Of a stretch of 64,000 bases of DNA, positions 6,560 to 47,027 are shown piece by piece (position 1 is the stretch's first letter; every line of letters starts with the position of its first letter). The stretch is from assembly GCA_017428055.1 (NCBI GenBank), contig JAFRRN010000032.1:40087-104086 (forward strand), written 5' to 3'. The notes under the pieces were generated by a model. The model was not told the origin of the DNA. It worked only from the letters and a program-made list of their open reading frames with translations, and made no database searches. The position numbers were made by a program, and so were the translations under genes. Source of the DNA: Prevotella sp. Its GTDB lineage: Bacteria; Bacteroidota; Bacteroidia; Bacteroidales; Bacteroidaceae.

Positions 6560-8533
6560 ATGGACGAACAACAAATCATCGAGAATAATTATTCCGCCAG
6601 TAACATACAAGTGCTTGAAGGACTGGAAGCTGTACGCAAGCGTCCAGCCATGTATATCGGCGACATTAGCGAGAAAGGACTACACCACTTGGTCAACGAG
6701 ACAGTTGACAACCCCATCGACGAGGCGATGGCGGGCTATTGCAAGAACATCGAAGTGACCATCAACGAGGACAATTCCATCACCGTGCAGGATGATGGCC
6801 GCGGCATCCCTGTTGACGAGCACGAGAAGATGCACAAGTCTGCCCTTGAGGTGGTGATGACAGTGTTACATGCTGGCGGTAAATTCGACAAGGGGTCATA
6901 CAAGGTTAGCGGCGGTCTGCATGGCGTGGGTGTGAGTTGTGTCAACGCCCTTTCCGCCCACATGCTTTCGCAAGTGTACCGCGACGGCAAGATTTACCAA
7001 CAAGAATACGAGAAAGGAAAGCCGCTCTATCCCGTGAAAGTGGTTGGCGAGACGGAACTACGAGGCACACGCCAGCAATTCTGGCCAGACCCCACCATCT
7101 TCACCACCACCGTCTACCAATGGGACATCATCGCCCGCCGTATGCGCGAATTGGCATATCTCAATGCGGGCATCACCATCAAGCTCGTGGACTTGCGTAA
7201 GGACGAGGAAGGCAAGACCAAGCAAGAGACATTCCACGCCGAGGAGGGCTTGAAGGAATTTGTGCGTTACATCGACCGCCACCGCACACATCTATTCAAC
7301 GACACCATCTACCTCAAGACGGAGAAGCAGGGCATACCCATCGAGGTCGCCATCATGTACAATACCGACTACTCCGAAAACATCCATTCATACGTCAACA
7401 ACATCAATACCATTGAGGGAGGAACGCACCTCACGGGATTCCGCATCGCATTGACACGTACACTCAAAGCATACGCAGATGCCGAACCAGCCATCTCCAA
7501 ACAGATAGAGAAGGCAAAAATCGAAATCACTGGCGAGGACTTCCGCGAGGGACTGACCGCTGTCATCTCCATTAAGGTGGCAGAACCACAGTTTGAAGGA
7601 CAGACCAAGACCAAGCTCGGTAACAGCGAAGTGACGGGTGCCGTGCAGCAAGCCGTGGGCGAGGCACTCAACTATTACCTCGAAGAGCATCCCAAGGAGG
7701 CGAAACAGATATGCGAGAAGGTGGTGTTGGCAGCAACGGCACGTATCGCCGCCCGCAAGGCGCGTGAGAGTGTGCAACGCAAGAACCCCATGAGCGGCGG
7801 TGGGTTGCCAGGCAAACTTGCCGACTGCTCCAACAAAGACCCCAAGGAGTGTGAGATATTCCTCGTCGAGGGAGACTCCGCCGGCGGCTCCGCCAAGCAG
7901 GGACGCGACCGTTACACACAAGCCATCCTGCCCCTTCGCGGAAAGATCTTGAACGTTGAGAAGGTGCAATGGCACCGTGTGTTCGAGGCGGAATCCGTCA
8001 TGAACATCATCCAGTCGATAGGCGTACGTTTCGGAGTGGACGGTGAGGCAGACCGTGAGGCGAATACGGACAAGTTGCGCTATGACAAGATCATCATCAT
8101 GACCGACGCCGATGTCGATGGATCACACATCGACACGCTCATCATGACGCTTTTCTACCGCTTCATGCCCAAGGTCATCCAAGAGGGACACCTCTATATC
8201 GCCACCCCCCCACTCTATCTCTGTACCTATAAGAACAAGGTGAAGGAGTATTGCTATACCGAACAGCAACGCCAAGCTTTCCTCGACAAGTACGGAAACG
8301 GCGTTGACGATGGCAAGAGCATACACACGCAACGGTACAAAGGTCTTGGTGAGATGAATCCCGAACAACTCTGGGAAACCACCATGGATCCAAAAACGCG
8401 CCTACTCAAGCAAGTGACCATCGAGAATGCCGCAGAGGCAGATGAAATCTTCTCCATGCTCATGGGCGATGACGTGGAACCGCGACGCGAGTTCATCGAG
8501 CAGAATGCCAACTACGCGAATATTGACGCATAA
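6560..8533 (+). CDS. gyrB: DNA gyrase subunit B
   Basis: This is the ATPase subunit of gyrase, which introduces negative supercoils together with GyrA. The protein is 657 residues, normal for Bacteroidetes. The GHKL ATPase has QVLEGLEAVRKRPAMYIGD, DDGRGIPVD and GGLHGVGVSCVNALS. The transducer domain follows, then TOPRIM with the EGDSAGG motif (LVEGDSAGGSAKQGRD) and DADVDGSHI, and the short GyrB C-terminal domain (QRYKGLGEMNPEQLW). One oddity is that the Mg-binding motif reads DNPIDEA (Pro codon at 6713) where the family usually has DNSIDEA or DNAIDEA, preceded by NET instead of the common YEV. ParE is a less likely alternative because overall identity follows GyrB. Confidence 0.95.
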   Translation: MDEQQIIENNYSASNIQVLEGLEAVRKRPAMYIGDISEKGLHHLVNETVDNPIDEAMAGYCKNIEVTINEDNSITVQDDGRGIPVDEHEKMHKSALEVVMTVLHAGGKFDKGSYKVSGGLHGVGVSCVNALSAHMLSQVYRDGKIYQQEYEKGKPLYPVKVVGETELRGTRQQFWPDPTIFTTTVYQWDIIARRMRELAYLNAGITIKLVDLRKDEEGKTKQETFHAEEGLKEFVRYIDRHRTHLFNDTIYLKTEKQGIPIEVAIMYNTDYSENIHSYVNNINTIEGGTHLTGFRIALTRTLKAYADAEPAISKQIEKAKIEITGEDFREGLTAVISIKVAEPQFEGQTKTKLGNSEVTGAVQQAVGEALNYYLEEHPKEAKQICEKVVLAATARIAARKARESVQRKNPMSGGGLPGKLADCSNKDPKECEIFLVEGDSAGGSAKQGRDRYTQAILPLRGKILNVEKVQWHRVFEAESVMNIIQSIGVRFGVDGEADREANTDKLRYDKIIIMTDADVDGSHIDTLIMTLFYRFMPKVIQEGHLYIATPPLYLCTYKNKVKEYCYTEQQRQAFLDKYGNGVDDGKSIHTQRYKGLGEMNPEQLWETTMDPKTRLLKQVTIENAAEADEIFSMLMGDDVEPRREFIEQNANYANIDA

Positions 8534-15407: not shown

Positions 15408-15776
15408 ATGAAAAGAATTTTTTTTGTTTTAGTATTAATGGAAATGGCACTATATAGCGGTGCTAAAACACAGGTTGTTAATGAAGAGATTTCCCTTCAG
15501 GTACGTTTTGACGATCCGACAAATGGTCATGAACCCTTTCCGAAATCTCCCATTAAGAAACCCACCATCTCTCTTAATGACCACACCTTGTATTTCAACA
15601 CCCCTTGCGACGGATGCACATTGAACATCGTGGACGGTAACGGTGTGGTGGCCTATACTACCGTGATTCCCACGGGGACGACATCCTTGGTGCTTCCCAC
15701 AACCCTTTCCGGCGAGTACGAGCTGCAAATCATAAGCGGGAACTACTGCTTTTGGGGAATCATCACATTATTATAA
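15408..15776 (+). CDS. DUF3244 secreted protein
   Basis: This is a 122-residue exported protein starting MKRIFFVLVLMEMALYSGA. An upstream in-frame ATG at 15351 lies before the promoter -7 box, so 15408 is preferred. The mature part (LYFNTPCDGCTLNIVDGNGV ... LSGEYELQIISGNYCFWGII) is a single immunoglobulin-like beta domain of the DUF3244 family. That family occurs widely in Bacteroidetes as small secreted proteins of unknown role. The gene is first in the operon with the Rhs shell genes (35-base gap). A role in display or chaperoning of the shell is possible but unproven. Confidence 0.75.
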   Translation: MKRIFFVLVLMEMALYSGAKTQVVNEEISLQVRFDDPTNGHEPFPKSPIKKPTISLNDHTLYFNTPCDGCTLNIVDGNGVVAYTTVIPTGTTSLVLPTTLSGEYELQIISGNYCFWGIITLL

Positions 15777-15811
15777 ATACTACATACTTCAACAAACAAC
15801 ACAATAACAAG

Positions 15812-18800
15812 ATGAAAAGAACAATTCATTATTTCCCTTTATTAATGTTATTCCTATTGCCCATGCCATTGCGGGGGAATCACCATGAGAGTGTAAACAG
15901 ATGGAATGAAAACCTGAATGACACGATATTCGTAGATAGTTTAATAATGGATTCCACGCTATTGCAAGGAAGACTAATGGCTTCAAATTCCAGCAACAAC
16001 GAATACACCGTTACATTTCCTGAATATGAGTACAAGTCGCCAGAGGCATCAGCATTCCGTAAATACGGGGAGGTGGAAGCCAACGAATACACGGGAAGCC
16101 CTAACATCAGTATACCATTATACACCCTCAAGTTCCACGACATCACCATACCCATATCATTGACTTACGACGCATCGGGGATAAAAGTAGACCAAGAAGC
16201 ATCATGGGTTGGGCTGGGCTGGAATCTCCTGACTGGCGGTTGCATCAACTACGTGATGTCGGGCGGCAAGGACATCAGCAACCTTTACAACTCTCCCGCT
16301 TACTTCCAGCAATTCGCCAGTCAAGGGTCTGGGTATTATGTTACTTTCACATCCAACATGGAAAACGACTTCCCATTGGTTGAGGATTTGCAAAACGGCT
16401 ATGGCGAACAAGATTATTATTCCGTAAACGTTCTCGGCAAGAATTTGCTATTTGTTTTTAATCCCGTCACCAACCAGCCCGAAGTCATTGGAAGGAACGA
16501 AGAACCCTTCAAGGTGGAGGAGTTAAATGGCTGCACATACCAAAGCACCAATGACGCAAGGTGGCGAATCACAGATGCCAACGGGCAACAATACTATTTT
16601 GAGCAGGGGGAATCAACGATCTCCAATGTTATTTCAGGTATGTACACTTCTACGTGGAATCTGACAAAAATAGTCTCTCCCAAGGGATTCACCGTAAATT
16701 TCACCTACTCTGATATATATCAAGTCGAATCGCTTGCCAATTACAGCGAAGTGTATGATTTCATACTCAACAAAGAACCCTATAGATGGTTGGTGAATAA
16801 CAAGATGGCCTCTTGCGACGAACTATTCGGCTACCATAACGCTTATGACCCGCCTTATCACTATATCATGACAAAATATCTAAGCCGCATTGAGACAGAC
16901 AACGAAAGGGTAACATTCTCACTGAGCGACAGGGATGACTACTCCGGCGCGAAGAGAATCGACACGATAACTATCACATCACGCCTGACGGGCAAGGAAA
17001 TCAAGAAATTACAGTTCAAATACTCCTACCTTTCCTCGTCTACTGTTGGAGGAAACCACCTTAGTCCATCCGATGACCCCATGGAGAACTTCCCGAAGTT
17101 ACGGACTCGCCTCATTCTCAACTCCATCAGTGAGATATTCGGTATAGACACTTTGAGTACCGCATTCGAATACGACCCTACTCCATTACCTATGAAAACC
17201 TCTTTTGCCAAGGACTTTTGGGGATATTACAATGGAAAGGAGAACAACAGCCATTCCATAGCACAGACAATCAGGACACTCCTTCCAACCTACTTTCCTC
17301 TGTCAGGCATTTATAATCTTCAATCTGAAGAAGCTCTACCCCGATTCACGGGAGCATACAGATATTGCGACCCCTCTTTCATCCAAGCGGGAACGCTAAA
17401 AAGAATCACCTATCCTACCAAGGGATATACATCGTTCACTTACGAGCCACACCAATTCATCTCACAGGACATTGCATACCCCTCTTCGGCGGACATGCAC
17501 GCCATCAGGCGTTACTACACCATCTACGCGGGTGATTACACATCAACGCCATATAGCTCACCACCCACTCATTACCAATTCGACATCGATGCCACGTTTC
17601 ATGGGACTTTAAAGATTAATTACGAGGGGACATTGAGCAGCCTTTACAACGGCAACGCCAATGTGACCATCTACCCCATGAATGGCGGAAGCCCCATAAG
17701 ATTCGACCTAAGGGATGCCCCTTCTGAAGAAATAGCATACGGAAATTCATATTCAGAGACAAGATACCTGACTTTGGGGGCTGGCTCATACATGCTTACC
17801 GCCACTTGTCCCTATCCCCCATACGGCGATATGTCTTTCAGGGTATATACAACCATTGACATCAAAAAAGAAATCAGTCCCAGCATTTACCCCGTTTCGA
17901 CAGGTGGCGGGTTGCGTGTGAAAATGATTGAAGACCACGACCATAACGGAACTTTACTGCGGAAGACAGAATACAAGTATGAGTTGGAAAACGGCATTTC
18001 GAGTGGTAAATTGTTGCGTCCCATGCAATGGGCGGAACGCAAAACCATCATATTCATCGGGCCAGACTATCCAGGCGATAATGCTGGCGCATCGAAATAC
18101 GAAATCCTTCGCCTACATAACACTCCTGTCGGAATACCTTCCTTCACATCTTCCGTGAGCAGGGGAGTTGTGGGATATTCACGTGTGGTAAAGAAACAAT
18201 ATGAGTCCAGCGAGACTGTGGGCAGGGAATGTACATCTTTCTACCTCAACCGTATACCCATAAAGGAATTAGGCAAGTTCTATTTCTTTGAAAGGTTTGA
18301 CAACGGGAAACTTGAAAAGCAATATGTAACGGACAAGGACAGTACTATCATCAGAAAAGTGGAAAACTCATATACCCCCATATCTTACATGCTTCCTATT
18401 TACAATGCTATATATGAGAATAGGTACATAGACTTCAGAGGGGCTGGGATATTGTCAATGGACTTTCCACATTACAAGTTTTGGACTTACCCTTTCCGAA
18501 CAAGCTGGAGTTTCCTTTCCCGTTCCACAAAAACAGAGTACGACGGCACGGATTCCTTGATTGTTACCCATGATTATACATACAACCTGGGCAACCATCA
18601 AGTAGCCAGCGACAGCTATAACTCCAGTATTGACAGCTTATGGTACGTGGGAAGATATTTCTATCCCTCCGACTACACCACTTCCATCATGCAATCCATG
18701 TGCGATAGTGCGAAATTCATACTTAATCCTATCATCAAGGAAACGCTTTCCGTTATGAAGGGCGAAACGGAGCGAGTCATACGAAAGCATGAGAACCAGT

Positions 18801-19303
18801 ATGTTTCTATCCAGAGGGACACGAGCCTTGAGGATGGGGTGAACTTTTGTATTAACAAGTCCTCATTCGCCCCATCTGGGGGTAGCCTGGAACAGCGTCT
18901 GTCATACACATACGACCATTTCGGTAACGTGACAAGCGTCACCAAGGATGGCAACGAATATGTTGCATACCTATATTCTTACAACCATACTTATCCTGTT
19001 GCAGAAATCAAGGGCGCATCCTATAGTCAAATTGTCAGCTGGTTAGGTACATCACGTATCAATTCGCTTTCCTCTTCCACCACGGGAATAGCCGAACTTC
19101 TGTCAGAAGTCCGAAATATCCTCGCCGCCAAGGACATACTGGTTACCACTTATACCTTTGAGCCATCGGTGGGCATGACCAGCATGACATTACCCAATGG
19201 CACTACCACATATTACGAATATGATGCGGCTGGAAGACTTTCGGTTGTACGTAATCATGACGGAAGTTTAGTGGAAAGGAATACCTACCATTATAAACAA
19301 TAA
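15812..19303 (+). CDS. Exported YD-repeat (Rhs-type) protein, N-terminal shell half
   Basis: This protein has about 1163 residues. The start at 15812 gives a signal peptide (MKRTIHYFPLLMLFLLPMPLRG); codons upstream do not. Residues from about 60 on resemble the SpvB/TcdB-like entry of Bacteroidetes Rhs proteins (SPNISIPLYTLKFHDITIPI, SGIKVDQEASWVGLGWNL). YD repeats follow (YTYDHFGNVTSVTKDGN; YYEYDAAGRLSVVRNHDGS). The Rhs core and a toxin tip are absent, because the protein stops after YHYKQ. The second half is encoded 5 bases downstream as its own exported protein. Together they may assemble a beta-cage, as TcB and TcC components do. It probably acts at the cell surface or is released. Confidence 0.85.
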   Translation: MKRTIHYFPLLMLFLLPMPLRGNHHESVNRWNENLNDTIFVDSLIMDSTLLQGRLMASNSSNNEYTVTFPEYEYKSPEASAFRKYGEVEANEYTGSPNISIPLYTLKFHDITIPISLTYDASGIKVDQEASWVGLGWNLLTGGCINYVMSGGKDISNLYNSPAYFQQFASQGSGYYVTFTSNMENDFPLVEDLQNGYGEQDYYSVNVLGKNLLFVFNPVTNQPEVIGRNEEPFKVEELNGCTYQSTNDARWRITDANGQQYYFEQGESTISNVISGMYTSTWNLTKIVSPKGFTVNFTYSDIYQVESLANYSEVYDFILNKEPYRWLVNNKMASCDELFGYHNAYDPPYHYIMTKYLSRIETDNERVTFSLSDRDDYSGAKRIDTITITSRLTGKEIKKLQFKYSYLSSSTVGGNHLSPSDDPMENFPKLRTRLILNSISEIFGIDTLSTAFEYDPTPLPMKTSFAKDFWGYYNGKENNSHSIAQTIRTLLPTYFPLSGIYNLQSEEALPRFTGAYRYCDPSFIQAGTLKRITYPTKGYTSFTYEPHQFISQDIAYPSSADMHAIRRYYTIYAGDYTSTPYSSPPTHYQFDIDATFHGTLKINYEGTLSSLYNGNANVTIYPMNGGSPIRFDLRDAPSEEIAYGNSYSETRYLTLGAGSYMLTATCPYPPYGDMSFRVYTTIDIKKEISPSIYPVSTGGGLRVKMIEDHDHNGTLLRKTEYKYELENGISSGKLLRPMQWAERKTIIFIGPDYPGDNAGASKYEILRLHNTPVGIPSFTSSVSRGVVGYSRVVKKQYESSETVGRECTSFYLNRIPIKELGKFYFFERFDNGKLEKQYVTDKDSTIIRKVENSYTPISYMLPIYNAIYENRYIDFRGAGILSMDFPHYKFWTYPFRTSWSFLSRSTKTEYDGTDSLIVTHDYTYNLGNHQVASDSYNSSIDSLWYVGRYFYPSDYTTSIMQSMCDSAKFILNPIIKETLSVMKGETERVIRKHENQYVSIQRDTSLEDGVNFCINKSSFAPSGGSLEQRLSYTYDHFGNVTSVTKDGNEYVAYLYSYNHTYPVAEIKGASYSQIVSWLGTSRINSLSSSTTGIAELLSEVRNILAAKDILVTTYTFEPSVGMTSMTLPNGTTTYYEYDAAGRLSVVRNHDGSLVERNTYHYKQ

Positions 19304-19308
19304 TCTTT

Positions 19309-22300
19309 ATGGGAAATATGGAAAATAGCAAGATTTTCACTATATTTGCAATGTCATTACACCTCATAGGAGTAATGGGTCAAAGTAACGTTCATAATTA
19401 CGTCATGAAAGAAACCATGCTAAGTGATGACTATATGGTAAAAAACACCGAAGTAAGGTACTATAATGGATTGGGTACCCCTGTCATGTCTGTAACGGAT
19501 GCTTTATCAGGCAGCGGAATGTTCACATACTCAATGCAATCTTATGACTTACTCGGCAGGCAGACGCAAACATGGTTGCCCGTGACGACCTCCAACACAT
19601 CGCCAAGCTATGTCGCACCATCTGAAATCCCCTCCATGTCAGAATCATTCCACCATGATGCCCATGCATACTTGCTTGTGTCTTATGACGCATCAGACCG
19701 ACTATTGGAAGAATGGGGAGCTGGAGAGACATGGCATCATGAAGGGCGCAAAAAGGAGACTTCCTATCGGTTTAACCACGCCAACGAAGTAAGATTATAC
19801 GATGCTCCCACGGATGGCTCATGCTCCTTGGTAAAGAAGGGATATTATGCCAAGAACAGACTCTCCGTAACGGAAGCCTCTGACGAGGAAGGGCACTCCA
19901 TACAGGTTTTCACGGACATGCAAGGACGCAAGGTGCTGGAGCGGCGAAATGGCAATAATGACACATACTTTGTGTACAACGACTTGGGGCAGCTCCGTTT
20001 CGTGCTGTCCCCAGGCTACCAAACGGAGGGACACAAGGCCAAGTACGCTTATGAATACCGATATGACGACAGGGGGCGGATGGTGAAGAAGATTCTGCCG
20101 GGTTGCCAATACGTGCAGTATTGGTACGACAGCACTGACCGACTCCTGTTCATGCAAGACGGGAAGCTGCGAGCGCAGGGCAAATACCGTTTCTTCTTTT
20201 GCGACCGCTTGGGAAGGCTTGCCGTGCAGGGTACATGTACCGCCTGCAATCGCGGCACTTACTATGCCGCCGTCAGTTTCACCCAAGGAACGGGTGGTTT
20301 TTGTAATACGGGATATGTGCTTACCAAGAGCGGCATCGTCACCTCACCGAAGTTGGAAGTCGTGAATTATTATGACACCTATGGATTCATGGAAAGGCTC
20401 ACGCCCGAGGAGCAGGACTCCTTGTCGTTCTGCCCCTTGGCGGGCTATCCCACGTCAGAGACGGCTGCAAAAGGATTGCCGACGGGAATCGTTACATACC
20501 TGATAGAGAACCCTTCTTTATACACAATCGCCACTACGTATTACGACGGGAAGGGAAGACCTGTCTGCACACGCGCCACTAACCATCTTGACGGGATGGA
20601 TGTCATGCACGTAAAATATACTTTCACGGGTAATCCCGAAAAGACCTGGCATCGCCAATCGTCGTCCATAGACATCGGGATAACAGAGGAATACGAATTC
20701 ATGTACGACCATGCGGACAGGCTTCAGAAAACATGGTACTCGCTGAACGGGTGCAGCCCCTTCGACCTATCGGAATGCTCATACGATGAATTGGGACGCA
20801 TTTACACGAAAACCATAGGTGGGACGGAGACCGTCCATTATGGCTACAATATCCGTAACTGGCCGACTGCCATCACAAGCCAGAAGTTCGCCGAGACCTT
20901 GACATACGGTGGGGCTGAGGATGGGTTCACGCCTACATACCCCTGTTTCAATGGCAACATATCAGCCATCCGCTGGCACGTTCAGGGGGATACCATACAG
21001 AGAGGCTACCAATTCCACTATGACAGTCTCGACAGGCTCACGGCAGCCCATTACGGAGAGGGCACGACGATAGGGAATAACGAGGGGCGGTACGATGAGA
21101 ATGCCACTTACGACAATATGGGCAACATGGTGAGGTTCAAGCGATACGGCAAGGCAGACAATGGCGCTTACGGGACGGTGGACGACCTGGTTATTTCACA
21201 CGACGGCAACCAGATGATCAAGGTGACCGACCATGCGGAGTACGATCCGACGGCAAAGGGGGCGTTCCATTTCAGTGACGGGGCGAATGAGAGTACGGAG
21301 TACACCTACGATGGCAACGGTAACATGACGAAAGACCTTAACAGAGGATTTACCTCCGTCAGCTACAACAACATAAACCTGCCTAACCTAATCGTCAATG
21401 GAACAAACAGGCATACAAGAATCGTCTATGACGCTGCGGGACGAAAACTCACCTCATATTCGGTAACAACAGCCCAGCTCTTATGGGACGATGAGGAAGA
21501 AAGTGCGTCAGGGGATACCAATGAGCCGCGCAGGGCAAGGGAGACCATGCCCAAGGGCTTTAGCGACTATATCGACTACTGCGCCAACATCGTCTATGAC
21601 GGGGAAAAAGCCATCGTCCTCAATCCCGAAGGGTATGCCGTGGTAGACCAAGGAGGTAACGCTACCTTCCACTACTATCTCCGAGACCACATCGGCAGCA
21701 ACCGGGTCGTGTTCACCCCACAGGACAGCATCGAGCAGGTGAACCACTACTACGCATGGGGTGGGCTGATGGACATCAGCTCCAACGAGGATGCCCAGCG
21801 ATATAGGTTCTGCGGGAAGGAACTATTAAGGGACAACGGCATCGACTGGTACGACCACGGGGCAAGATGGTACGACGCGACATTGCCGACTTGGCATACC
21901 ATGGATCCATTAAGTGAGAGTTACTACAATATCAGTCCGTTTGTGTATTGCGCAGGGAATCCCATTAATTTAAAAGATTTAGATGGAAGAAAGTTCGTTT
22001 TTACAAATGGTACAACAGATTCGTTTAAAGAATCATTTTACAAAGCAATCAATCTCCTTAATACGAAAGGGTGTGGTGATTTATATAACTTGATAGAAAG
22101 TGTTTCAATCAATATATACATAATTGAAAAATATGACATAGAGGATGGCAACTATTTTGACAGCACAAAAGAATCTCTTTTTTGGAATCCTCATAGGGGT
22201 ATTAAGACAACGAATGAAATCTTTTTATCACCTACCACATTATTGAATCATGAATTAGACCATATCTCTGAATACTTATTTAATAATAGTCAGTATAACA

Positions 22301-22536
22301 TCAATTCTAAAGATGACGATAAAAACCTTTACACAAACAAGGAGGAAGAACGAGTAATAAAAGGATCAGAACAGAAAACCGCAAAAGCGTTAGGGGAAAT
22401 TAGAGATGGAGAAACAACAAGAACTGACCATTCTGGTTTTGCTTTTGAGACGAATGACCCAACTTCAAATAAACCGTTAAATGAGAGTCATGATGATGAA
22501 TTTGTTATATATGGGCAGAAAATCAATAAACAATAG
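19309..22536 (+). CDS. Exported Rhs core protein with C-terminal metalloprotease-like toxin
   Basis: This is a 1075-residue protein with its own signal peptide (KIFTIFAMSLHLIGVMGQ). YD repeats run to about residue 760. The conserved Rhs core follows (YYLRDHIGSNRVVFTPQD, YRFCGKELLRDNGIDWYDHG, DPLSESYYNISPFVYCAGNP), ending with DLDGRKF near residue 894. The last about 180 residues are a variable tip with lower GC. They contain LLNHELDHISEYL, a zinc-protease HExxH motif (residues 981-985), and EERVIKGSEQKTAKALGEIR with a later RTDHSG. This resembles M91-type effector proteases found as Rhs tips in Bacteroidetes. The gene downstream overlaps it and may encode immunity. No PAAR or VgrG domain is present. 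Confidence 0.85.
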   Translation: MGNMENSKIFTIFAMSLHLIGVMGQSNVHNYVMKETMLSDDYMVKNTEVRYYNGLGTPVMSVTDALSGSGMFTYSMQSYDLLGRQTQTWLPVTTSNTSPSYVAPSEIPSMSESFHHDAHAYLLVSYDASDRLLEEWGAGETWHHEGRKKETSYRFNHANEVRLYDAPTDGSCSLVKKGYYAKNRLSVTEASDEEGHSIQVFTDMQGRKVLERRNGNNDTYFVYNDLGQLRFVLSPGYQTEGHKAKYAYEYRYDDRGRMVKKILPGCQYVQYWYDSTDRLLFMQDGKLRAQGKYRFFFCDRLGRLAVQGTCTACNRGTYYAAVSFTQGTGGFCNTGYVLTKSGIVTSPKLEVVNYYDTYGFMERLTPEEQDSLSFCPLAGYPTSETAAKGLPTGIVTYLIENPSLYTIATTYYDGKGRPVCTRATNHLDGMDVMHVKYTFTGNPEKTWHRQSSSIDIGITEEYEFMYDHADRLQKTWYSLNGCSPFDLSECSYDELGRIYTKTIGGTETVHYGYNIRNWPTAITSQKFAETLTYGGAEDGFTPTYPCFNGNISAIRWHVQGDTIQRGYQFHYDSLDRLTAAHYGEGTTIGNNEGRYDENATYDNMGNMVRFKRYGKADNGAYGTVDDLVISHDGNQMIKVTDHAEYDPTAKGAFHFSDGANESTEYTYDGNGNMTKDLNRGFTSVSYNNINLPNLIVNGTNRHTRIVYDAAGRKLTSYSVTTAQLLWDDEEESASGDTNEPRRARETMPKGFSDYIDYCANIVYDGEKAIVLNPEGYAVVDQGGNATFHYYLRDHIGSNRVVFTPQDSIEQVNHYYAWGGLMDISSNEDAQRYRFCGKELLRDNGIDWYDHGARWYDATLPTWHTMDPLSESYYNISPFVYCAGNPINLKDLDGRKFVFTNGTTDSFKESFYKAINLLNTKGCGDLYNLIESVSINIYIIEKYDIEDGNYFDSTKESLFWNPHRGIKTTNEIFLSPTTLLNHELDHISEYLFNNSQYNINSKDDDKNLYTNKEEERVIKGSEQKTAKALGEIRDGETTRTDHSGFAFETNDPTSNKPLNESHDDEFVIYGQKINKQ
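21817..21961 (+). repeat. Rhs core segment duplicated upstream of the orphan tip
   Basis: These 145 bases recur at 23333-23477 (offset 1516) with three differences. The copies diverge exactly at the start of the variable tip. One change turns a TAT Tyr codon (21946-21948) into TAG in the second copy. Confidence 0.92.
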
Positions 22537-23296
22537 TTGCATGTGCATCCTGATATGGACCATCGGGACCATGGGTGCTTTCGCGACGAACCGCTACAAT
22601 TTTTATTTGGAGGGCGTTGACAAAGTAATCGTGAAAAGAGGTCCTTGGGATGCACTTCCCCCCGTGAGTGTCAGTTGCATGGATTTTGAGGGGCAGTTGC
22701 ATTTTGATCAGTTTGTGATACGTGACGGGGAAAGAATCAAAGATTTATGCAAGTTGATGGAGTCCCTGAAACCTAAAGAATGCAAATATGGGGTTGACGT
22801 AAGGTGTAAGATATACATGTACCATGGCGATGAGCTTGTCACCACCGCATGCATGAACAAGTACTCCTGCATGATTGACGGGAATTGTTACAAGACGACA
22901 GATGAGATGGTGGAATTCCTCAATGCGATTCCAGACGACGAGCTTTGCCCACCTGGCACGTACACACGAAAACTGGATGGCAGCATAGTAGAAAGGTCAT
23001 TTCCCAATGGAAGGGACAGCTTAACTGTCTTGATTGACGAGCGACTGGTGCCGCGCTTGACAAAATTGGGGCTGGAAACCCCTATCAGGTTTGAGGTAAT
23101 GTGCACGGCCGAACAAGATGGCACCCCTACGATGGTGAAGGCATCCGCCACGGACATGGACGGGAACAGACGGGCCGTCTCCGATGAAGTCACCCAAACG
23201 GTCGTGGCATTCTTCAAGGAAGACATCAGATGGAAGCCGAACAAAGAACGAATGTGTTTTGACATCATCCCTGTCAATATTACGTTCATTCCGTAG
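22511..23296 (+). CDS. Exported protein with TonB-C-like end, candidate immunity protein
   Basis: This protein has about 261 residues. The start at 22511 gives a signal peptide (MGRKSINNSCMCILIWTIGTMGAFA) and a 26-base overlap with the Rhs toxin gene; 22541 is an alternative. The mature protein has an unrecognised N-terminal half. Its C-terminal domain (IRFEVMCTAEQDGTPTMVKA ... EDIRWKPNKERM, then PVNITFIP) resembles the TonB C-terminal fold: a strand with D-G, a W-K-P motif, and a final P-hydrophobic strand. Position directly after the toxin tip is the classic place for immunity. A periplasmic immunity protein fits an exported toxin. The immunity role is inferred from position. Confidence 0.6.
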   Translation: MGRKSINNSCMCILIWTIGTMGAFATNRYNFYLEGVDKVIVKRGPWDALPPVSVSCMDFEGQLHFDQFVIRDGERIKDLCKLMESLKPKECKYGVDVRCKIYMYHGDELVTTACMNKYSCMIDGNCYKTTDEMVEFLNAIPDDELCPPGTYTRKLDGSIVERSFPNGRDSLTVLIDERLVPRLTKLGLETPIRFEVMCTAEQDGTPTMVKASATDMDGNRRAVSDEVTQTVVAFFKEDIRWKPNKERMCFDIIPVNITFIP

Positions 23297-23332: not shown

Positions 23333-24181
23333 AAGGAACTATTGAGGGACAACGGCATCGACTGGTACGACCACGGGGCAAGATGGTACGACGCGACATT
23401 GCCGACTTGGCATACCATGGATCCATTAAGTGAGAGTTACTACAATATCAGTCCGTTGGTGTAGTGCGCAGGGAATCCTATTGTTTTTGTGGACAAAGAT
23501 GGCAAAAGGCCATCTGCTAATGAAGCTGCATTAATGGCAGCACATGTGTATGAGGACAAGGATGCCGATAATTATATGAACAAACTTAAAGATGCAGGCT
23601 GGACCATATCTGATTTTAATACTTCAATTAAAATGGAATATTCAAAATTCAGTCAAAATGGATTAAAATCAGAATTGTTTCAAAGAACTATTGATGGGGC
23701 TACCGAATATGCCTATGTCTTTGCAGGAACAAATCCACTTTCAATAGAAGACTGGGTGGAAGACATTGCCCAAGTTGCAGGTTTGTCCTCGCAGTACAAT
23801 ACTGCGATATATAATGCTAAAACTTTGTCCGATGAATTAGGAGATAAGGAATTGACATTTGTTGGGCATTCTTTAGGTGGCGGGGAGGCTGCCGCATCAA
23901 GTATGGCAACGGGAAGGGCAGCCATCACTTTCAATGCTGCTGCCGTAAGTGGACTTACTTCGTATTTCCATAAATTAGTTAACGCCAATAACGTAACCAA
24001 TTATAGGGCAGTTGGTTCTAAAATTGGTATAGGAAATATTAGAATTGGCGGAGACATCCTAAATAATATTCAAGAAAAAATAGGACTAAAACTTCCAGGA
24101 ACAACAATTTCTGTACCTACAGGTATACTTCCAACTCATACGATTAAAGATTTTCTAAAGTATAACTTACCAGAACCATGA
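23333..24181 (+). pseudogene. Orphan Rhs tip: duplicated core fragment plus lipase-like toxin, interrupted by TAG
   Basis: Bases 23333-23477 copy the Rhs core at 21817-21961 and would read KELLRDNGIDWYDHGARWYD ... ISPLV, then TAG (23462-23464) where the intact gene has Tyr. Reading continues in frame through CAGNPIVFVDKDGKRPS into a 230-residue tip. That tip has the lipase/serine-hydrolase elbow VGHSLGGGEAA. It also has FAGTNPLSIEDWVEDI upstream and a late His in LPTHTIKDF, a lipase class 3-like triad layout. Upstream of the copy there is no signal peptide or start. This is therefore a silent orphan cassette that could become active by recombination with the intact core. Its stop codon overlaps the next gene (ATGA at 24178). 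Confidence 0.85.
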
Positions 24182-24756
24182 TAAAAAGAAAACATTTTCT
24201 TATATTACTTTCCGTCTTGCTGTTGCCTATGTGCGTGTATCACAAAATAACCCACATGGAAAAAGGGGACTTGGCTTGGATGGAATCATACCATGCAGGA
24301 GACACCGTTATGTTCTCCAACGGGAGTCTAACAGATACTCTCATCGTAAGGGGAATAAAAGTTCACAACTCGCTTAATCCCATCAATACGAACTTCAATG
24401 CAAGTTCTGTCTACGAAGCCGTGGCATACCTTGATTATGACATCATACATGATAATGACACCATGGAAGGATGGTTCTCTATCCGTAAAGAAGAACAAGG
24501 GCAGCCCGTGTATCTCAATTTTTCGTTATGCGACAGATATGCCCTCAAAGGGATAAAACCACGTTTTAAGAATTTCATCATCAACCAATCAAGCTATGAT
24601 GACTGTATCGTTATTGACAAAAGTAACTCAAGTTTAGGAAAATACCAGTCCAAAACATGTGGTGTCAAGAGTCTTATCTGGAGTAAGTCAAGAGGTCTGC
24701 TACAATATTCTTTCAGCAATGGAGACAAATATGTACGAAAAGACTTGAACGGTTAG
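24178..24756 (+). CDS. Exported hypothetical protein, candidate immunity for the lipase-like tip
   Basis: This is a 192-residue protein with a signal peptide or lipoprotein-like leader (MIKRKHFLILLSVLLLPMC). The mature part is beta-rich and unrecognised. Its ATG overlaps the stop of the orphan tip (ATGA), the usual tight linkage of a toxin with its immunity gene. Residues from about 74 (NASSVYEAVAYLDYDIIHDN) recur in a truncated remnant at 26304-26399. Function is inferred from position. Confidence 0.6.
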   Translation: MIKRKHFLILLSVLLLPMCVYHKITHMEKGDLAWMESYHAGDTVMFSNGSLTDTLIVRGIKVHNSLNPINTNFNASSVYEAVAYLDYDIIHDNDTMEGWFSIRKEEQGQPVYLNFSLCDRYALKGIKPRFKNFIINQSSYDDCIVIDKSNSSLGKYQSKTCGVKSLIWSKSRGLLQYSFSNGDKYVRKDLNG

Positions 24757-24816: not shown

Positions 24817-25026
24817 ATGATGCAACTTATCAGGAATGCGGGAAATGGTCATCGTCTATATGCGCGCCTGACCATACAAGACATGTTGCTCATCAAAGGG
24901 CTGTACAAGACATGGTGGAAGGAACAGCAAGGGAAAAGCATCCGTGAAATCCGCAGGGAATGGGAAGGCAAAGACATCATCAATTCAAGTTCCACTTCAG
25001 TCAAAGTCTTCTATAAATGGATATAA
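24817..25026 (+). pseudogene. Fragment of a duplicated hypothetical gene (C-terminal part)
   Basis: A 69-codon open frame ends in GLYKTWWKEQQGKSIREIRR ... VFYKWI. This is nearly the C-terminus of the intact gene ending at 27060 (GLYKTWWEKQQGKSIREIRE ... FYKWI). The N-terminal two thirds are missing. Directly after it, at 25046-25081, a second remnant (MRKTLCVLLESIYITT) resembles the first residues of the gene at 27080 (MRKTICIFLASMAFAS). The block is a decayed copy of the gene order further downstream. Confidence 0.75.
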
Positions 25027-25108
25027 CCCTATGAAATCAGACTATATGAGGAAAACGCTTTGTGTCTTACTGGAGTCAATATATATAACAACTATACAAA
25101 CAGACAAC

Positions 25109-26281
25109 ATGAAAAGGTATTTTATCTTGCTATCATCACTGATGATTGACAGCATATCCATTCAAGCACAGGTGTCATTGACTGCCGAACGGAATGGCAT
25201 TCGCAATGGTGACATCATCATGAAGCAACGTACAGCATACACCGGTACGAGCCAAAAAGGGAATGATGTAGTTTGGGATTTCAGCATGTCAGAGAACATG
25301 GGTGACCCATTTAGGGCAACCTATTGGAATGCGGCGGCACGAGGTCATGCCTTGGCGAAAACGGAACGGAAGGCAAGTAGCTATTACGAACATTACGGAG
25401 ACACCCTCATGTTGACGGGACAGGAAAGCAACATGACGCGCATCCACTATGCCATGGGTATTCCCCTGCTGCGCTACCCTATGGCGATGAGCGACAGCAT
25501 TGGGGGCTATTATCATGGGTACGCCGTTGACTGCGAAAACATCTACCTTCGCATTTTTGGCTATTCCATATCCAAGGTTGATGCCATGGGAACGCTCATC
25601 CTTCCTTCTAACGACACCCTGAAAAACGTGATGCGTGTACACACCAAGAACCTTTTTGGGATGAAACGTTGCGAGGATGTGAAGACGGAGAGTCAATTGT
25701 CCAACCTCACCAGCAACATCCACCCATTCACGACTGACAGCGTGGTGGCATACTTGCAAGACACTTTGCCCCAAATGGAGGAGCATACATACCTTTGGTA
25801 CGCACAGGGCTATCGTTATCCCGTCATGGAAACGACCTCGGTGGGGCATACCGGCAATAAGAAGATATATGCTGCCACCTATTACTATAGCCCATCAGAA
25901 CAAGAATACCTTGCCAATGACCCGACAAACGAGAATGTACGAGCCGCCATGGGAAAGTCTATGCTGCAACAAGCAACACCGCAATTTGGGGAAATCAAAG
26001 GGATGGGAAGCTTCTTCGACAACGGATTCACCTACCATGTGGTTGGGCCAGACGCTGCCGGGCAGTTGCTGGTTGAATGCCGATGCGCTTCACCTACCGA
26101 TGTGTTATGTGGGCTGTATACGGCAAGCGGCGCAGTAACTGGGATTGTGCAACATGCAGAGAATGTTGACGTTGCACACTCGTTCAAGATGGACATGTTA
26201 GGGTTGGCATCGGGCGTTTACCTGTTGGCTTTTAGCGTGAACGGTCAAGCGTACTCAGAAAAAGTTGCGTGGAAACGATGA
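25109..26281 (+). CDS. Secreted protein with C-terminal sorting-like domain
   Basis: This is a 390-residue protein starting MKRYFILLSSLMIDSISIQAQ. Longer in-frame readings run through the upstream remnants and lack a signal. The mature N-terminal part is a beta-rich domain of unknown function (SLTAERNGIRNGDIIMKQRT). The C-terminal about 80 residues (LYTASGAVTGIVQHAENVDV ... GLASGVYLLAFSVNGQAYSE) have the Gly-Val-Tyr-Leu pattern of type A sorting domains used by type IX secretion or similar surface attachment. It lies between the two copies of the duplicated block. Its role is unknown. Confidence 0.7.
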   Translation: MKRYFILLSSLMIDSISIQAQVSLTAERNGIRNGDIIMKQRTAYTGTSQKGNDVVWDFSMSENMGDPFRATYWNAAARGHALAKTERKASSYYEHYGDTLMLTGQESNMTRIHYAMGIPLLRYPMAMSDSIGGYYHGYAVDCENIYLRIFGYSISKVDAMGTLILPSNDTLKNVMRVHTKNLFGMKRCEDVKTESQLSNLTSNIHPFTTDSVVAYLQDTLPQMEEHTYLWYAQGYRYPVMETTSVGHTGNKKIYAATYYYSPSEQEYLANDPTNENVRAAMGKSMLQQATPQFGEIKGMGSFFDNGFTYHVVGPDAAGQLLVECRCASPTDVLCGLYTASGAVTGIVQHAENVDVAHSFKMDMLGLASGVYLLAFSVNGQAYSEKVAWKR

Positions 26282-26303
26282 GATTCTTTACGGCCGACGC
26301 AGT

Positions 26304-26399
26304 AATGCAAGTTCTGTCTACGAAGCCGTTGCATACCTTAATCATGATATTTTACACGCCAATGCAAATACTGTTAAGAAATCAATTAAGTGGAAGTAA
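26304..26399 (+). pseudogene. Remnant of a second copy of the candidate immunity gene
   Basis: Thirty-one codons read NASSVYEAVAYLNHDILHAN ... KWK and then a TAA at 26397-26399. They align with residues 74 onward of the protein encoded at 24178-24756. The DNA is nearly identical over about 40 bases (from AATGCAAGTTCTGTC), then diverges. No start codon precedes it. It overlaps the probable start of the next gene in another frame. Confidence 0.75.
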
Positions 26400-27060
26400 A
26401 AGGCTATATGTCTTTTTCATGTTATCGGCTGGTTTATGCGCATATTTGTTGGAGGGTTGCCAGCCTAATAAAGGTGGTGAGGTTACCACAAGACAAGTCT
26501 TGAAATATACAAGCCCGAAAGAAAAGGACATCCGTTTCTTGGACTCTCTCATCTCGGTGGGCAATTACACGGAATGGGATTTCCGCAACGCCATCGCCCA
26601 CGGCCAGGAGTTACTGCCGATATTGATAGACAACTTGGATAGGGATCTGTATGTTCCATACTTGTACATCCTTAACCCATTTGATTCTTATTGCCCCCCC
26701 TCCGATGACATTCCCATCGGAATGAAATATGCCTACCTCGTCGAATACATATTGGCAGACAAGCATATCCCTCAAAATGCCAAGTACGAGACTAACTCCT
26801 ATGTAGGATGTAACGACTCCATAGAGGCATACCGCTTGATAAATGCTAATATGCATTCTCTTTACGGCGTTATCATCAGGAACACGAAATATGATCATTA
26901 TCTATCTCGGCGCCTGATCATGGAAGACATGATTCCCATCAAAGGGCTGTACAAGACATGGTGGGAGAAACAGCAAGGGAAAAGCATCCGTGAAATCCGC
27001 GAGGAATGGGAAGCCAAAGGCATCCTCAATTCAAGAAATATCTTCTATAAATGGATATAA
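26362..27060 (+). CDS. Hypothetical exported protein (intact copy of the duplicated gene)
   Basis: The start is ambiguous. 26362 gives MQILLRNQLSGSKRLYVFF plus a hydrophobic run ending LLEGC, a plausible lipoprotein leader. 26419 is shorter but lacks positive charge. The mature part is alpha-helical and unrecognised (RFLDSLISVGNYTEWDFRNA; DSYCPPSDDIPIGMKYAYLV). The C-terminus GLYKTWWEKQQGKSIREIRE is repeated at 24871-25026. It may be an immunity-like or accessory protein of the Rhs locus, judged only by location. Confidence 0.6.
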   Translation: MQILLRNQLSGSKRLYVFFMLSAGLCAYLLEGCQPNKGGEVTTRQVLKYTSPKEKDIRFLDSLISVGNYTEWDFRNAIAHGQELLPILIDNLDRDLYVPYLYILNPFDSYCPPSDDIPIGMKYAYLVEYILADKHIPQNAKYETNSYVGCNDSIEAYRLINANMHSLYGVIIRNTKYDHYLSRRLIMEDMIPIKGLYKTWWEKQQGKSIREIREEWEAKGILNSRNIFYKWI

Positions 27061-27079
27061 CCAAATAGGATAAAGCGAA

Positions 27080-27604
27080 ATGAGAAAAACTATTTGTATT
27101 TTTCTGGCATCAATGGCATTTGCCAGTATGGATGCGCAGACAAATCCACAGGCGGGGTATATCATCACCCTTGGGAATGATACTGTGTATGGCACCGTTG
27201 ACTATCGCACGGATGCCAAGAACGCACGGTCGTGCCTGTTCAGGGCAGACGGCGAGCAAACGTTCCGCGAATACATGCTGCAAGACATCAGAGGGTATCG
27301 GCTCCAAGGGCAAGGCGTGTTTTATGTCACCCGTTCCTTTCCTGTTGAGGGTGAGACCAAGACTTTCTTTGCCGAGTACCTGTTGAAGGGCGGTGTCAGC
27401 CTGTATCGCCATCGGGAGAATGAGACCGACTACTACTATTTTGTGGACGAGAATGGAAACGTTTACACTTTGAAGGAGACGGGCGTGGAATACATGATGG
27501 GTACACATCGGTTGAGCCTCACGGGCAACTATGTGATGCGCAACTTTGGCTCGTTTGGTTTCCGCGCACCGATGTTCACAGTCAATATCGGGTTCGTGAT
27601 GTAA
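27080..27604 (+). CDS. Secreted protein resembling a shortened Bacteroidetes outer-membrane family member
   Basis: This is a 174-residue protein with a signal peptide (MRKTICIFLASMAFASMDAQ). The first domain (GYIITLGNDTVYGTVDYRTD, then IRGYRLQGQGVFYVTRSFPV) matches the N-terminal module of a widespread Bacteroidetes family that usually continues into a beta-barrel of about 200 further residues. Here the chain passes quickly to a final barrel-like strand (FRAPMFTVNIGFVM), so an internal deletion is likely. The start of a second copy is present at 25046-25081. A terminator follows at 27628-27657. Confidence 0.6.
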   Translation: MRKTICIFLASMAFASMDAQTNPQAGYIITLGNDTVYGTVDYRTDAKNARSCLFRADGEQTFREYMLQDIRGYRLQGQGVFYVTRSFPVEGETKTFFAEYLLKGGVSLYRHRENETDYYYFVDENGNVYTLKETGVEYMMGTHRLSLTGNYVMRNFGSFGFRAPMFTVNIGFVM

Positions 27605-45623: not shown

Positions 45624-47027
45624 ATGACAGTAAGCCCAAAAGCTCAATGGGACAGAAGTCTTGCGCTTATTCGCAACAATGTCTCGGAGCAACAATATAA
45701 AACATGGTTCAAGCCGATAGTCTTCGAGTCGTTCAACGAGACGACCAAGATCCTCTTGGTGCAAGTACCGAGTCCTTTCGTGTACGAGTACCTTGAGGAG
45801 AACTATGTGGACTTACTCAGCAAGGTGTTGCGCCGCACATTCTGTGAAGGCATCAGGTTAAGATACAGGGTGGTGACTGACAAGGAAAACCATCTCGCGC
45901 AAGATTTCGAGGGGGAGCCCGCAAGCACCATTACCCAGCAACCCACGCTGCGCGCCAACAAGTCGCAAACGGTCTTGGATGCCGCCACACCCCAGCCTAT
46001 CGACCCGCAACTCAATCCCCGCCAGACATTCGCCAACTTCATTGAGGGCGACAGCAACAAGCTGCCACGCGCCGTGGGGTTGTCCATTGCCTCCAATCCC
46101 AACAACAACCAATTCAACCCGATGTTCGTATATGGTCCCTCGGGATGCGGCAAGACACATCTCATAAATGCCATTGGCGTACATATCAAACAACTGTTCC
46201 CGCAGAAACGGGTGTTGTACGTAAGCGCACGGCTCTTCCAAGTACAATATACCGACTCCGTGAGGCAAAACACCGTCAACGACTTCATCAATTTCTACCA
46301 GACCATCGATGTCCTTATTGTGGACGACGTGCAGGAATGGATCGGTTCGGAGAAGACACAATTGACATTCTTCCATATCTTCGACCACCTCTTCCGCAAC
46401 GGAAGGCGCATCGTACTCGCCTCCGACCGCCCACCAGTAGACCTCAAGGGAATGCCAGAACGCCTGTTGACACGCTTCGCCTGTGGCTTGATAGCCGAGC
46501 TGGAGAGACCCAACGAGCAACTTTGCATCGACATCGTGAACAATATCGTGCAGCGCGACGGCCTGAACATCCCAGAGGAAGTGGTGCTATTCATCGCCCG
46601 GACAGCCCAAGGCAGCGTGAGAGACCTCGAGGGTGCCGTCAATTCACTCCTTGCATATAGTGTGGTCTTCAACACCCCCATCAACCTTGACCTGGCCCAG
46701 CGGGTCATCAAGCGTTCCGTCAACGTGAAAGAAAAGCCCATCACCATCGACGACATCCTGGAAAGGGTATGCAACCACTTCAACGTCGCCTTGGCAGACG
46801 TGAACGGGAAGAGCCGCAAGCGCGACCTCGTGGTGGCTCGCCAGGTGTCGATGTACCTCACACAGAAATACACCAAGATGCCCACCAACCGCATCGGGAA
46901 GCTCATTGGCAACCGTGACCATAGCACCGTTATCCACAGTTGTACGCAAGTGGAGGAACGGATGAAGATAGACAAGTCGTTTGCCAATGAGGTGCAAAGC
47001 ATAGAAAACTCATTTCGCCTGAGATAA
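45624..47027 (+). CDS. dnaA: Chromosomal replication initiator protein DnaA
   Basis: This is a 467-residue AAA+ initiator that binds oriC and opens the duplex. Domain I (WDRSLALIRNNVSEQQYKTW) is followed by a linker and the ATPase, with Walker A GPSGCGKT (171-178) and Walker B VLIVDDVQ. Domain IV carries the DnaA signature GNRDHSTVIHSCTQVEE. All motifs look intact and length is normal. dnaN or other replication genes are not adjacent. The 22-nt palindrome array B begins 22 bases after the stop. Confidence 0.97.
   Translation: MTVSPKAQWDRSLALIRNNVSEQQYKTWFKPIVFESFNETTKILLVQVPSPFVYEYLEENYVDLLSKVLRRTFCEGIRLRYRVVTDKENHLAQDFEGEPASTITQQPTLRANKSQTVLDAATPQPIDPQLNPRQTFANFIEGDSNKLPRAVGLSIASNPNNNQFNPMFVYGPSGCGKTHLINAIGVHIKQLFPQKRVLYVSARLFQVQYTDSVRQNTVNDFINFYQTIDVLIVDDVQEWIGSEKTQLTFFHIFDHLFRNGRRIVLASDRPPVDLKGMPERLLTRFACGLIAELERPNEQLCIDIVNNIVQRDGLNIPEEVVLFIARTAQGSVRDLEGAVNSLLAYSVVFNTPINLDLAQRVIKRSVNVKEKPITIDDILERVCNHFNVALADVNGKSRKRDLVVARQVSMYLTQKYTKMPTNRIGKLIGNRDHSTVIHSCTQVEERMKIDKSFANEVQSIENSFRLR

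What the first reader, a model, noticed from the sequence alone, without database searches (positions are those of the whole stretch)
23333..24181. Orphan Rhs toxin tip with a 145-bp copy of the core and an in-frame TAG
Bases 23333-23477 repeat the Rhs core at 21817-21961 with three differences, then switch to an unrelated lipase-like tip (GHSLGG) with its own overlapping candidate immunity gene. The TAG at 23462-23464 and the missing start keep it silent. The shared core would let recombination swap the metalloprotease tip for the lipase tip. This is the orphan-cassette design known from Proteobacterial Rhs/CDI loci, here in an exported Bacteroidales Rhs system.
Basis: partly seen in the sequence, partly recalled or inferred. 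Interest (0 to 1): 0.78.

Follow-up and report, generated by a model that had tools for sequence, protein, structure and literature searches.

The report
Silent spare toxin tip behind Rhs
Behind a large, probably secreted Rhs toxin gene of an unnamed Bacteroidales bacterium sits a second lipase toxin end, cut off from the delivery part, with its own likely protector gene: a spare or discarded warhead of a kind known from other bacteria, in a group where such spare ends are common and have been exchanged between related species.

Summary
Observation confirmed: 23333-23477 copies Rhs core 21817-21961 at 142 of 145 bases, one difference being the in-frame TAG; an unrelated tip follows. The tip is a class-3 lipase: its profile finds the E. 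cloacae T6SS lipase effector at E 3e-24, Foldseek ranks that effector first, and Ser, acidic residue and His are kept. Homologues of the overlapping gene adjoin lipase tips in 14 of 24 tip-bearing genomes, own included. Core copies occur in 146 of 398 same-genus genomes, two or more in 89. Species G421 and G440 share 7,150 bp at 97%: a related lipase tip is mounted in one and orphaned in the other, but cassette order differs and the direction of change is unresolved. The design, with a stop in retained core, is known (Poole 2011; Koskiniemi 2014). The stop lies inside the shared repeat, which weakens the ready-reservoir reading. By-product: three species carry signal peptide + last core residues + tip + immunity without an Rhs body, two of them the nearest relatives found of this tip.

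The parts
15752..19303 (+). First Rhs gene (1183 aa; signal-peptide-like N-terminus by eye; YD repeat near its end)
   Evidence: Pfam RHS_repeat, NCBIfam YD_repeat; homologous parts of this and the next gene lie in one frame in L070 and L084
19309..22536 (+). Main Rhs gene: signal-peptide-like start, DUF6443, Rhs-associated core, M91-like metallopeptidase tip (HELDH)
   Evidence: DUF6443 E 6e-18; Peptidase_M91 E 4e-4, below its cut-off; Rhs_assc_core E 1.6e-14; HELDH
21817..21961 (+). Core copy 1, inside the main gene
   Evidence: 142/145 identical to 23333-23477
21970..22536 (+). Mounted metallopeptidase-like tip, 31% G+C against 51% in the body
   Evidence: similar frames in seven other fetched loci
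22481..23296 (+). Candidate immunity gene of the metallopeptidase tip
   Evidence: homologue directly behind an M91-like tip in L070, another in L069
23333..23477 (+). Core copy 2, retained core of the orphan
23462..23464 (+). In-frame TAG in the retained core
23465..24181 (+). Orphan lipase tip (GHSLGG)
24178..24756 (+). Candidate immunity gene of the lipase tip, lipoprotein-like start by eye
   Evidence: homologues adjoin lipase tips in 14 of 24 genomes, own included
24817..25026 (+). Fragment like the 3' end of 26269-27060 (older remnant or segmental duplication)
   Evidence: 24829-25080 matches 26875-27114 at 77% over 252 columns
26304..26364 (+). Fragment like an internal part of 24178-24756
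   Evidence: 85% over 61 nt to 24397-24457

Best explanation
An orphan toxin/immunity cassette in an exported, two-gene Rhs polymorphic-toxin locus, made by exchange of tips at the shared core. Most likely an incoming cassette (metallopeptidase tip plus its immunity gene) recombined into the core and a former or alternative lipase tip, with 145 bp of core and its immunity gene, now lies behind it. Without delivery part, signal peptide or an uninterrupted core frame the lipase is not made as an exported toxin; its lipoprotein-like partner may still be made and protect against neighbours with that tip. Shown: repeat, lipase family, conserved partner gene, frequent arrays with shared core and unlike tips, one species pair with a related tip mounted in one and orphaned in the other. 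Inferred: that this lipase was ever mounted on this gene, expression, toxicity and protection.
For: Repeat and TAG. Lipase by profile, fold and residues. Partner gene at the tip in 14 of 24 genomes. In 22 loci (20 fetched because they hold several core copies, plus L024 and the window) 71 within-locus core pairs have median DNA identity 88% (range 52-99) against 57% for 1945 between-locus pairs; 69 of 71 pairs have an in-register repeat ending at a median +9 nt from the core end (quartiles -7, +22; extremes -63, +846), with length 62-2192 bp. Tips are at background identity in 68 of 71 pairs. G421/G440: 7,150 columns at 97.3%; lipase tip mounted in G421, a 97%-identical one orphaned about 5 kb downstream in G440 with 229 bp of core. 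In the last 100 bp of core G421 differs from the G440 orphan at 6 sites and from the G440 main copy at 20; in the 129 bp before, at 15 and 6. Two further species pairs share bodies (92.7% over 1905 bp, 94.9% over 766 bp) with different tips. The lipase tip sits in frames of 1000 aa or more in 9 of 24 genomes.
Against: No second strain of this species is held, so the event is not seen at this locus. The nearest relatives found of the tip (G561 71% over 233 aa, G270 77% over 128 aa) are in signal-peptide mini-genes, not on Rhs bodies, so the tip may have arrived without being mounted here. In G421 a second, truncated lipase piece with its immunity gene (98.7% over 866 bp to the other copy) lies further down the array and shared cassettes stand in another order than in G440, so that pair is more than one simple step and its direction is open. 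The G421 tip runs off its contig. Orphans are not significantly more often cut short than mounted tips (12 of 47 versus 1 of 12, Fisher P 0.27).
Confidence: 0.8

Rival explanations
1. A live reservoir: recombination over the shared core now and then mounts the lipase tip, as in evolved Salmonella.
For: Near-identical repeat; tip frame open and active-site residues kept; reported in Salmonella over a 522-bp, 95% repeat (PMC3967940, passages); the hybrid core ends of G421/G440 also fit mounting of an orphan, and G421 keeps a second lipase piece downstream.
Against: The TAG lies in the repeat and most exchanges would carry it along; the repeat is short; no switch seen in this species. Odds raised from 0.2 to 0.3.
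Confidence: 0.3
2. The cassette is kept for its immunity gene alone; the toxin part is a passenger.
For: In E. coli EC93 orphan immunity was made although the orphan toxin appeared not to be (PMC3150448, passages); immunity frame open.
Against: The tip frame shows no further damage; against a G270 piece dN/dS is 0.08, though dS is near saturation.
Confidence: 0.35
3. Decaying debris without a present role.
For: Two of three differences change the protein; fragments of neighbouring genes at 24817-25080 and 26304-26364; broken lipase orphans in G440 and G270.
Against: The tip/immunity pairing recurs in many genomes.
Confidence: 0.3
4. The TAG is a sequencing or assembly error and the retained core is open.
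For: Draft genome in 106 contigs; repeats are error-prone.
Against: No direct evidence; the copy lacks an upstream start in any case.
Confidence: 0.1

Closest known systems
Orphan rhs-CT/rhsI and cdiA-CT/cdiI modules (Poole et al. 2011, PMC3150448; passages)
   Same: Tip fragments with varying retained core, generally no initiation signals, followed by immunity genes behind the main gene; one Y. pseudotuberculosis rhs orphan has an in-frame stop in retained core
   Different: Here a Bacteroidales Rhs in two genes with signal-peptide-like starts and DUF6443; no function tested
Salmonella Typhimurium LT2 orphan Rhs switching (Koskiniemi et al. 2014, PMC3967940; passages)
   Same: Main gene and orphan share a core repeat
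   Different: 522 bp at 95% there with recombinants found; here 145 bp with a stop inside and none observed
Polymorphic toxin cassettes (Zhang et al. 2012, PMC3482391; passages)
   Same: Standalone toxin/immunity cassettes near full toxins; Sec-exported and RHS-bearing toxins, Bacteroidetes among them; lipase-like hydrolase toxins
   Different: Counts for this genus and the G421/G440 comparison were not in the passages seen
E. cloacae Tle/Tli T6SS phospholipase pair (PDB 7ubz, 9cys; PMC11470151, passages)
   Same: Related lipase domain by sequence and fold; lipoprotein immunity
   Different: T6SS delivery; the immunity model here had no Foldseek match at E 0.001 or better
TANFOR polymorphic toxins of Bacteroidetes (PMC7073777; passages)
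   Same: Exchangeable C-terminal toxins with immunity genes; toxin domains also encoded just downstream of the carrier; link to T9SS proposed
   Different: Other N-terminal carrier; 'orphan' does not occur in its text

Membership tests
Orphan Rhs toxin/immunity cassette | Retained stretch of the main gene's core in front of an unrelated tip | tested here: met
   142/145 identity, ending near the tip boundary
Orphan Rhs toxin/immunity cassette | No delivery part or start region | tested here: met
   TAG, no further core upstream; only a GTG inside the tip region
Orphan Rhs toxin/immunity cassette | Cognate immunity gene directly downstream | tested here: inconclusive
   Partner conserved in 14 of 24 genomes; neutralisation not testable here
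Orphan Rhs toxin/immunity cassette | Same tip family mounted on full-length Rhs elsewhere | tested here: met
   Frames of 1000 aa or more in 9 of 24 genomes, Rhs-like sequence upstream in those printed
Orphan Rhs toxin/immunity cassette | Exchange seen between related genomes | tested here: met
   G421/G440, relatives and not this species; direction unresolved
Switchable orphan (Salmonella type) | Recombinant junction detected in a population | not testable with these tools
   No reads or strains held
Class-3 lipase / T6SS lipase effector relatives | Profile and fold match, GHSxGG, acidic residue, His | tested here: met
   Pfam Lipase_3 alone is below its cut-off
Class-3 lipase / T6SS lipase effector relatives | Phospholipase activity | not testable with these tools
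   needs an assay
T6SS-delivered effector | T6SS in the genome | tested here: inconclusive
   No VipB match in the own genome; the model matched 1 of 14 control genomes, E. coli, and may miss Bacteroidales sheaths

The most novel reading that the evidence does not exclude
In this genus the Rhs tip boundary works as a portable socket. Besides large Rhs genes it is found fused directly to a signal peptide (constant part about 44 residues: signal peptide, WPW, SPYAYCxxNPxxFIDPDG). G561 carries there an open lipase tip with its immunity gene, G270 a frame-broken one, G356 an unrelated HELYGH tip with another immunity gene. In G561 and G356 the mini-gene follows the same transglutaminase-like gene and the two loci share 1,117 columns at 84% that end at the boundary. 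This would be a body-less mini polymorphic toxin that draws on the same tip pool as the Rhs arrays, and the window's orphan lipase tip is nearest to its members.
Probability: 0.5. Interest if true: 0.65.

Novelty: new member of a known kind. Interest (0 to 1): 0.42.

Why it matters
It carries the orphan-cassette model into Rhs systems with signal-peptide-like starts in a large Bacteroidales genus, with counts (two or more core copies in 89 of 398 sampled genomes) and a species pair in which tips were exchanged at the core. That makes the genus a good place to ask why silent toxin tips are kept. The body-less carriers, if functional, would ask what the large Rhs shell is needed for.

Tried and rejected
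DNA relatives of the Rhs body: 12 of 149 genomes, own included; outside the own genome only short matches of 38 to 287 bases at 67-88%, so no strain-level comparison at this locus. Orphans versus mounted tips cut short: not significant (of 64 copies 4 at a contig's 5' edge and 1 at a 3' edge were left out, and the window's orphan counts among the 12 short ones). Relatives of the 26269-27060 product: own plus one weak hit in 200 genomes, so its role is open. Foldseek for the immunity model: none at E 0.001 or better. Query 'P0005' was set in the wrong frame; its rows mean nothing. In one search the window pair reads 91.3% because the HMM hit includes unrelated upstream codons; the exact value is that. 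Two core hits that do not reach the boundary were dropped. Papers: no text in the library holds DUF6443; searches listed no paper that by title or start of abstract describes these arrays or the mini-carriers; listings only, so no proof of absence.

Full report
What is there. Two genes encode an Rhs system with signal-peptide-like starts (by eye): 15752-19303 (YD repeat near its end) and 19309-22536 (DUF6443, Rhs-associated core, then an M91-like metallopeptidase tip with HELDH). In L070 and L084 homologous parts of both lie in one frame, so they are probably one functional unit. Behind the tip come a candidate immunity gene (22481-23296), 36 bp, and the finding: 145 bp of core, 142 identical to the main copy, with a TAG as one of three differences, and an open 238-codon tip overlapping the next gene by four bases. 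One difference is synonymous, one Phe to Leu, one the stop. These are the only two such places in the own genome. The tips have 31% and 38% G+C, the body 51%.

The tip is a lipase. Pfam Lipase_3 reaches only E 0.005, below its cut-off. In an alignment of 16 rows (window, relatives, some rows pieces of broken frames) GHSxGG is invariant, the His nearly so, and the acidic position reads D in 11 and E in 4 of the 15 rows that cover it; the catalytic roles are my reading. The profile finds the E. cloacae T6SS lipase effector at E 3e-24; two weaker rows, one labelled HIV envelope gp120 (2.8e-5) and one Phospholipase A1 (0.0073), were not followed. The AlphaFold model (mean pLDDT 76.9, pTM 0.83) ranks 9cys, the same effector with its immunity protein, first at E 2.5e-9, TM 0.59 by query length.

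The neighbour is its immunity gene by association. Of 24 genomes (own included) that matched the tip at E 1e-10 or better among 398 of the genus, 14 have a homologue of the 24178 product adjoining a lipase tip or tip fragment; in the other 10 none was found within the roughly 1.5 kb fetched. Several start like lipoproteins (by eye). Against G270 the tip pieces are 77% and 59% identical, the immunity proteins 32%. Neutralisation is not tested.

The setting is ordinary for the genus. The core (156 aa query) matches in 146 of 398 genomes at E 0.001; 89 have two or more listed matches, 45 four or more. I fetched 20 stretches because they hold several core copies and 14 because they hold lipase-tip matches, so these are not a random sample. 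In 22 loci with two or more usable copies, 71 within-locus core pairs have median identity 88% (52-99) and 1945 between-locus pairs 57% (a few of the latter from one genome). The shared DNA mostly ends close to the tip boundary (median +9 nt, quartiles -7 and +22) and is 62 to 2192 bp long. Three of 71 tip pairs are duplicates.

Exchange is visible, its direction is not. G421 and G440, held as two species, share 7,150 columns at 97.3% through the Rhs genes. In G421 the gene carries the lipase tip up to the contig's end. In G440 it carries another tip, and a 97%-identical lipase tip lies downstream with 229 bp of core and a broken frame. In the last 100 bp of core G421 differs from the G440 orphan at 6 sites and from the G440 main copy at 20; in the 129 bp before, at 15 and 6. 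Such reciprocal hybrids are what one crossover in the core leaves, whether it displaces a mounted tip or mounts an orphan. A second G421 contig, which begins with the last 55 bases of the first, holds relatives of the G440 cassettes in another order, and a second lipase 3' piece with immunity gene (98.7% over 866 bp). So cassettes moved more than once. Two more species pairs share bodies with different tips. In 9 of 24 genomes the lipase tip sits in a frame of 1000 aa or more.

What it most likely does. As it stands the lipase is not delivered: no start region, no signal peptide, a stop in the core. Its immunity gene may be the useful part. Mounting it by recombination is possible in principle and known from Salmonella (PMC3967940, passages), but 129 of the 145 repeat bases lie 5' of the TAG, so most exchanges would carry it along. 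Poole et al. describe a Y. pseudotuberculosis orphan with a stop in retained core (PMC3150448, passages). I therefore file it as a new member of a known kind. Delivery is open: the own genome has 10 places over the cut-off for a T9SS sorting tail and no VipB match; neither says what this Rhs uses.

A by-product that may be newer. The nearest relatives found of the tip, in G270 and G561, are not on Rhs bodies. They begin with a signal peptide (by eye), then WPW, then SPYAYC..NP..FIDPDG, then lipase, then immunity gene. A pattern for this start occurs in 3 of 398 genomes, while the reversed control pattern occurs in 2, so the count alone means little; but the three translate to the same kind of start. 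The third, G356, carries an unrelated HELYGH tip and another immunity gene; that tip has relatives behind Rhs core in L069, L076 and L098. G561 and G356 share 1,117 columns at 84%, from inside a transglutaminase-like gene (Transglut_core2 E 2.7e-4, below its cut-off) through the signal peptide, ending 132 bases into the mini-gene. In G270 the contig starts just upstream, so its neighbour is mostly unseen. The transglutaminase-like gene has stops in G356 and matched in 2 of 140 sampled genomes, not in the own. G561 had no Rhs core match, but its genome is 75% complete.

Noticed in passing
G561 = L131:6994-9426; G356 = L135:393-2701; G270 = L023:1-1476: Signal peptide fused directly to the Rhs tip boundary, with exchangeable tips and immunity genes: a possible body-less polymorphic toxin locus.
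   Followed up: partly
L136:8618-9004: In G356 a piece similar to the 3' end of the upstream yifB/ComM-like gene recurs behind the mini-carrier's immunity gene (72% over 393 columns), as if the module had been inserted with a duplicated target.
   Followed up: no
L140 (G421:C23) against L141 (G440): Shared cassettes stand in a different order in two species with a 97%-identical Rhs body; G421 also has a second lipase 3' piece with immunity gene.
   Followed up: partly
L069:8836-8994 and L100:3028: The same degenerate core remnant stands before the tip boundary in two species (G357 and G270), so an orphan with damaged core was inherited or transferred.
   Followed up: no
L083:11079-12362: Two tandem, diverged immunity genes of the lipase family behind one orphan tip in G440.
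   Followed up: no
window 24829-25080 and 26875-27114; 24397-24457 and 26304-26364: Diverged duplication downstream of the orphan, with fragments of an immunity gene and of the 26269-27060 gene.
   Followed up: partly
window 25046-26281: Secreted-looking protein whose C-terminus resembles a T9SS sorting tail by eye; no NCBIfam match.
   Followed up: no
window 6560-8533 and 45624-47027: Genes with gyrase B and DnaA domains lie in the same window.
   Followed up: no
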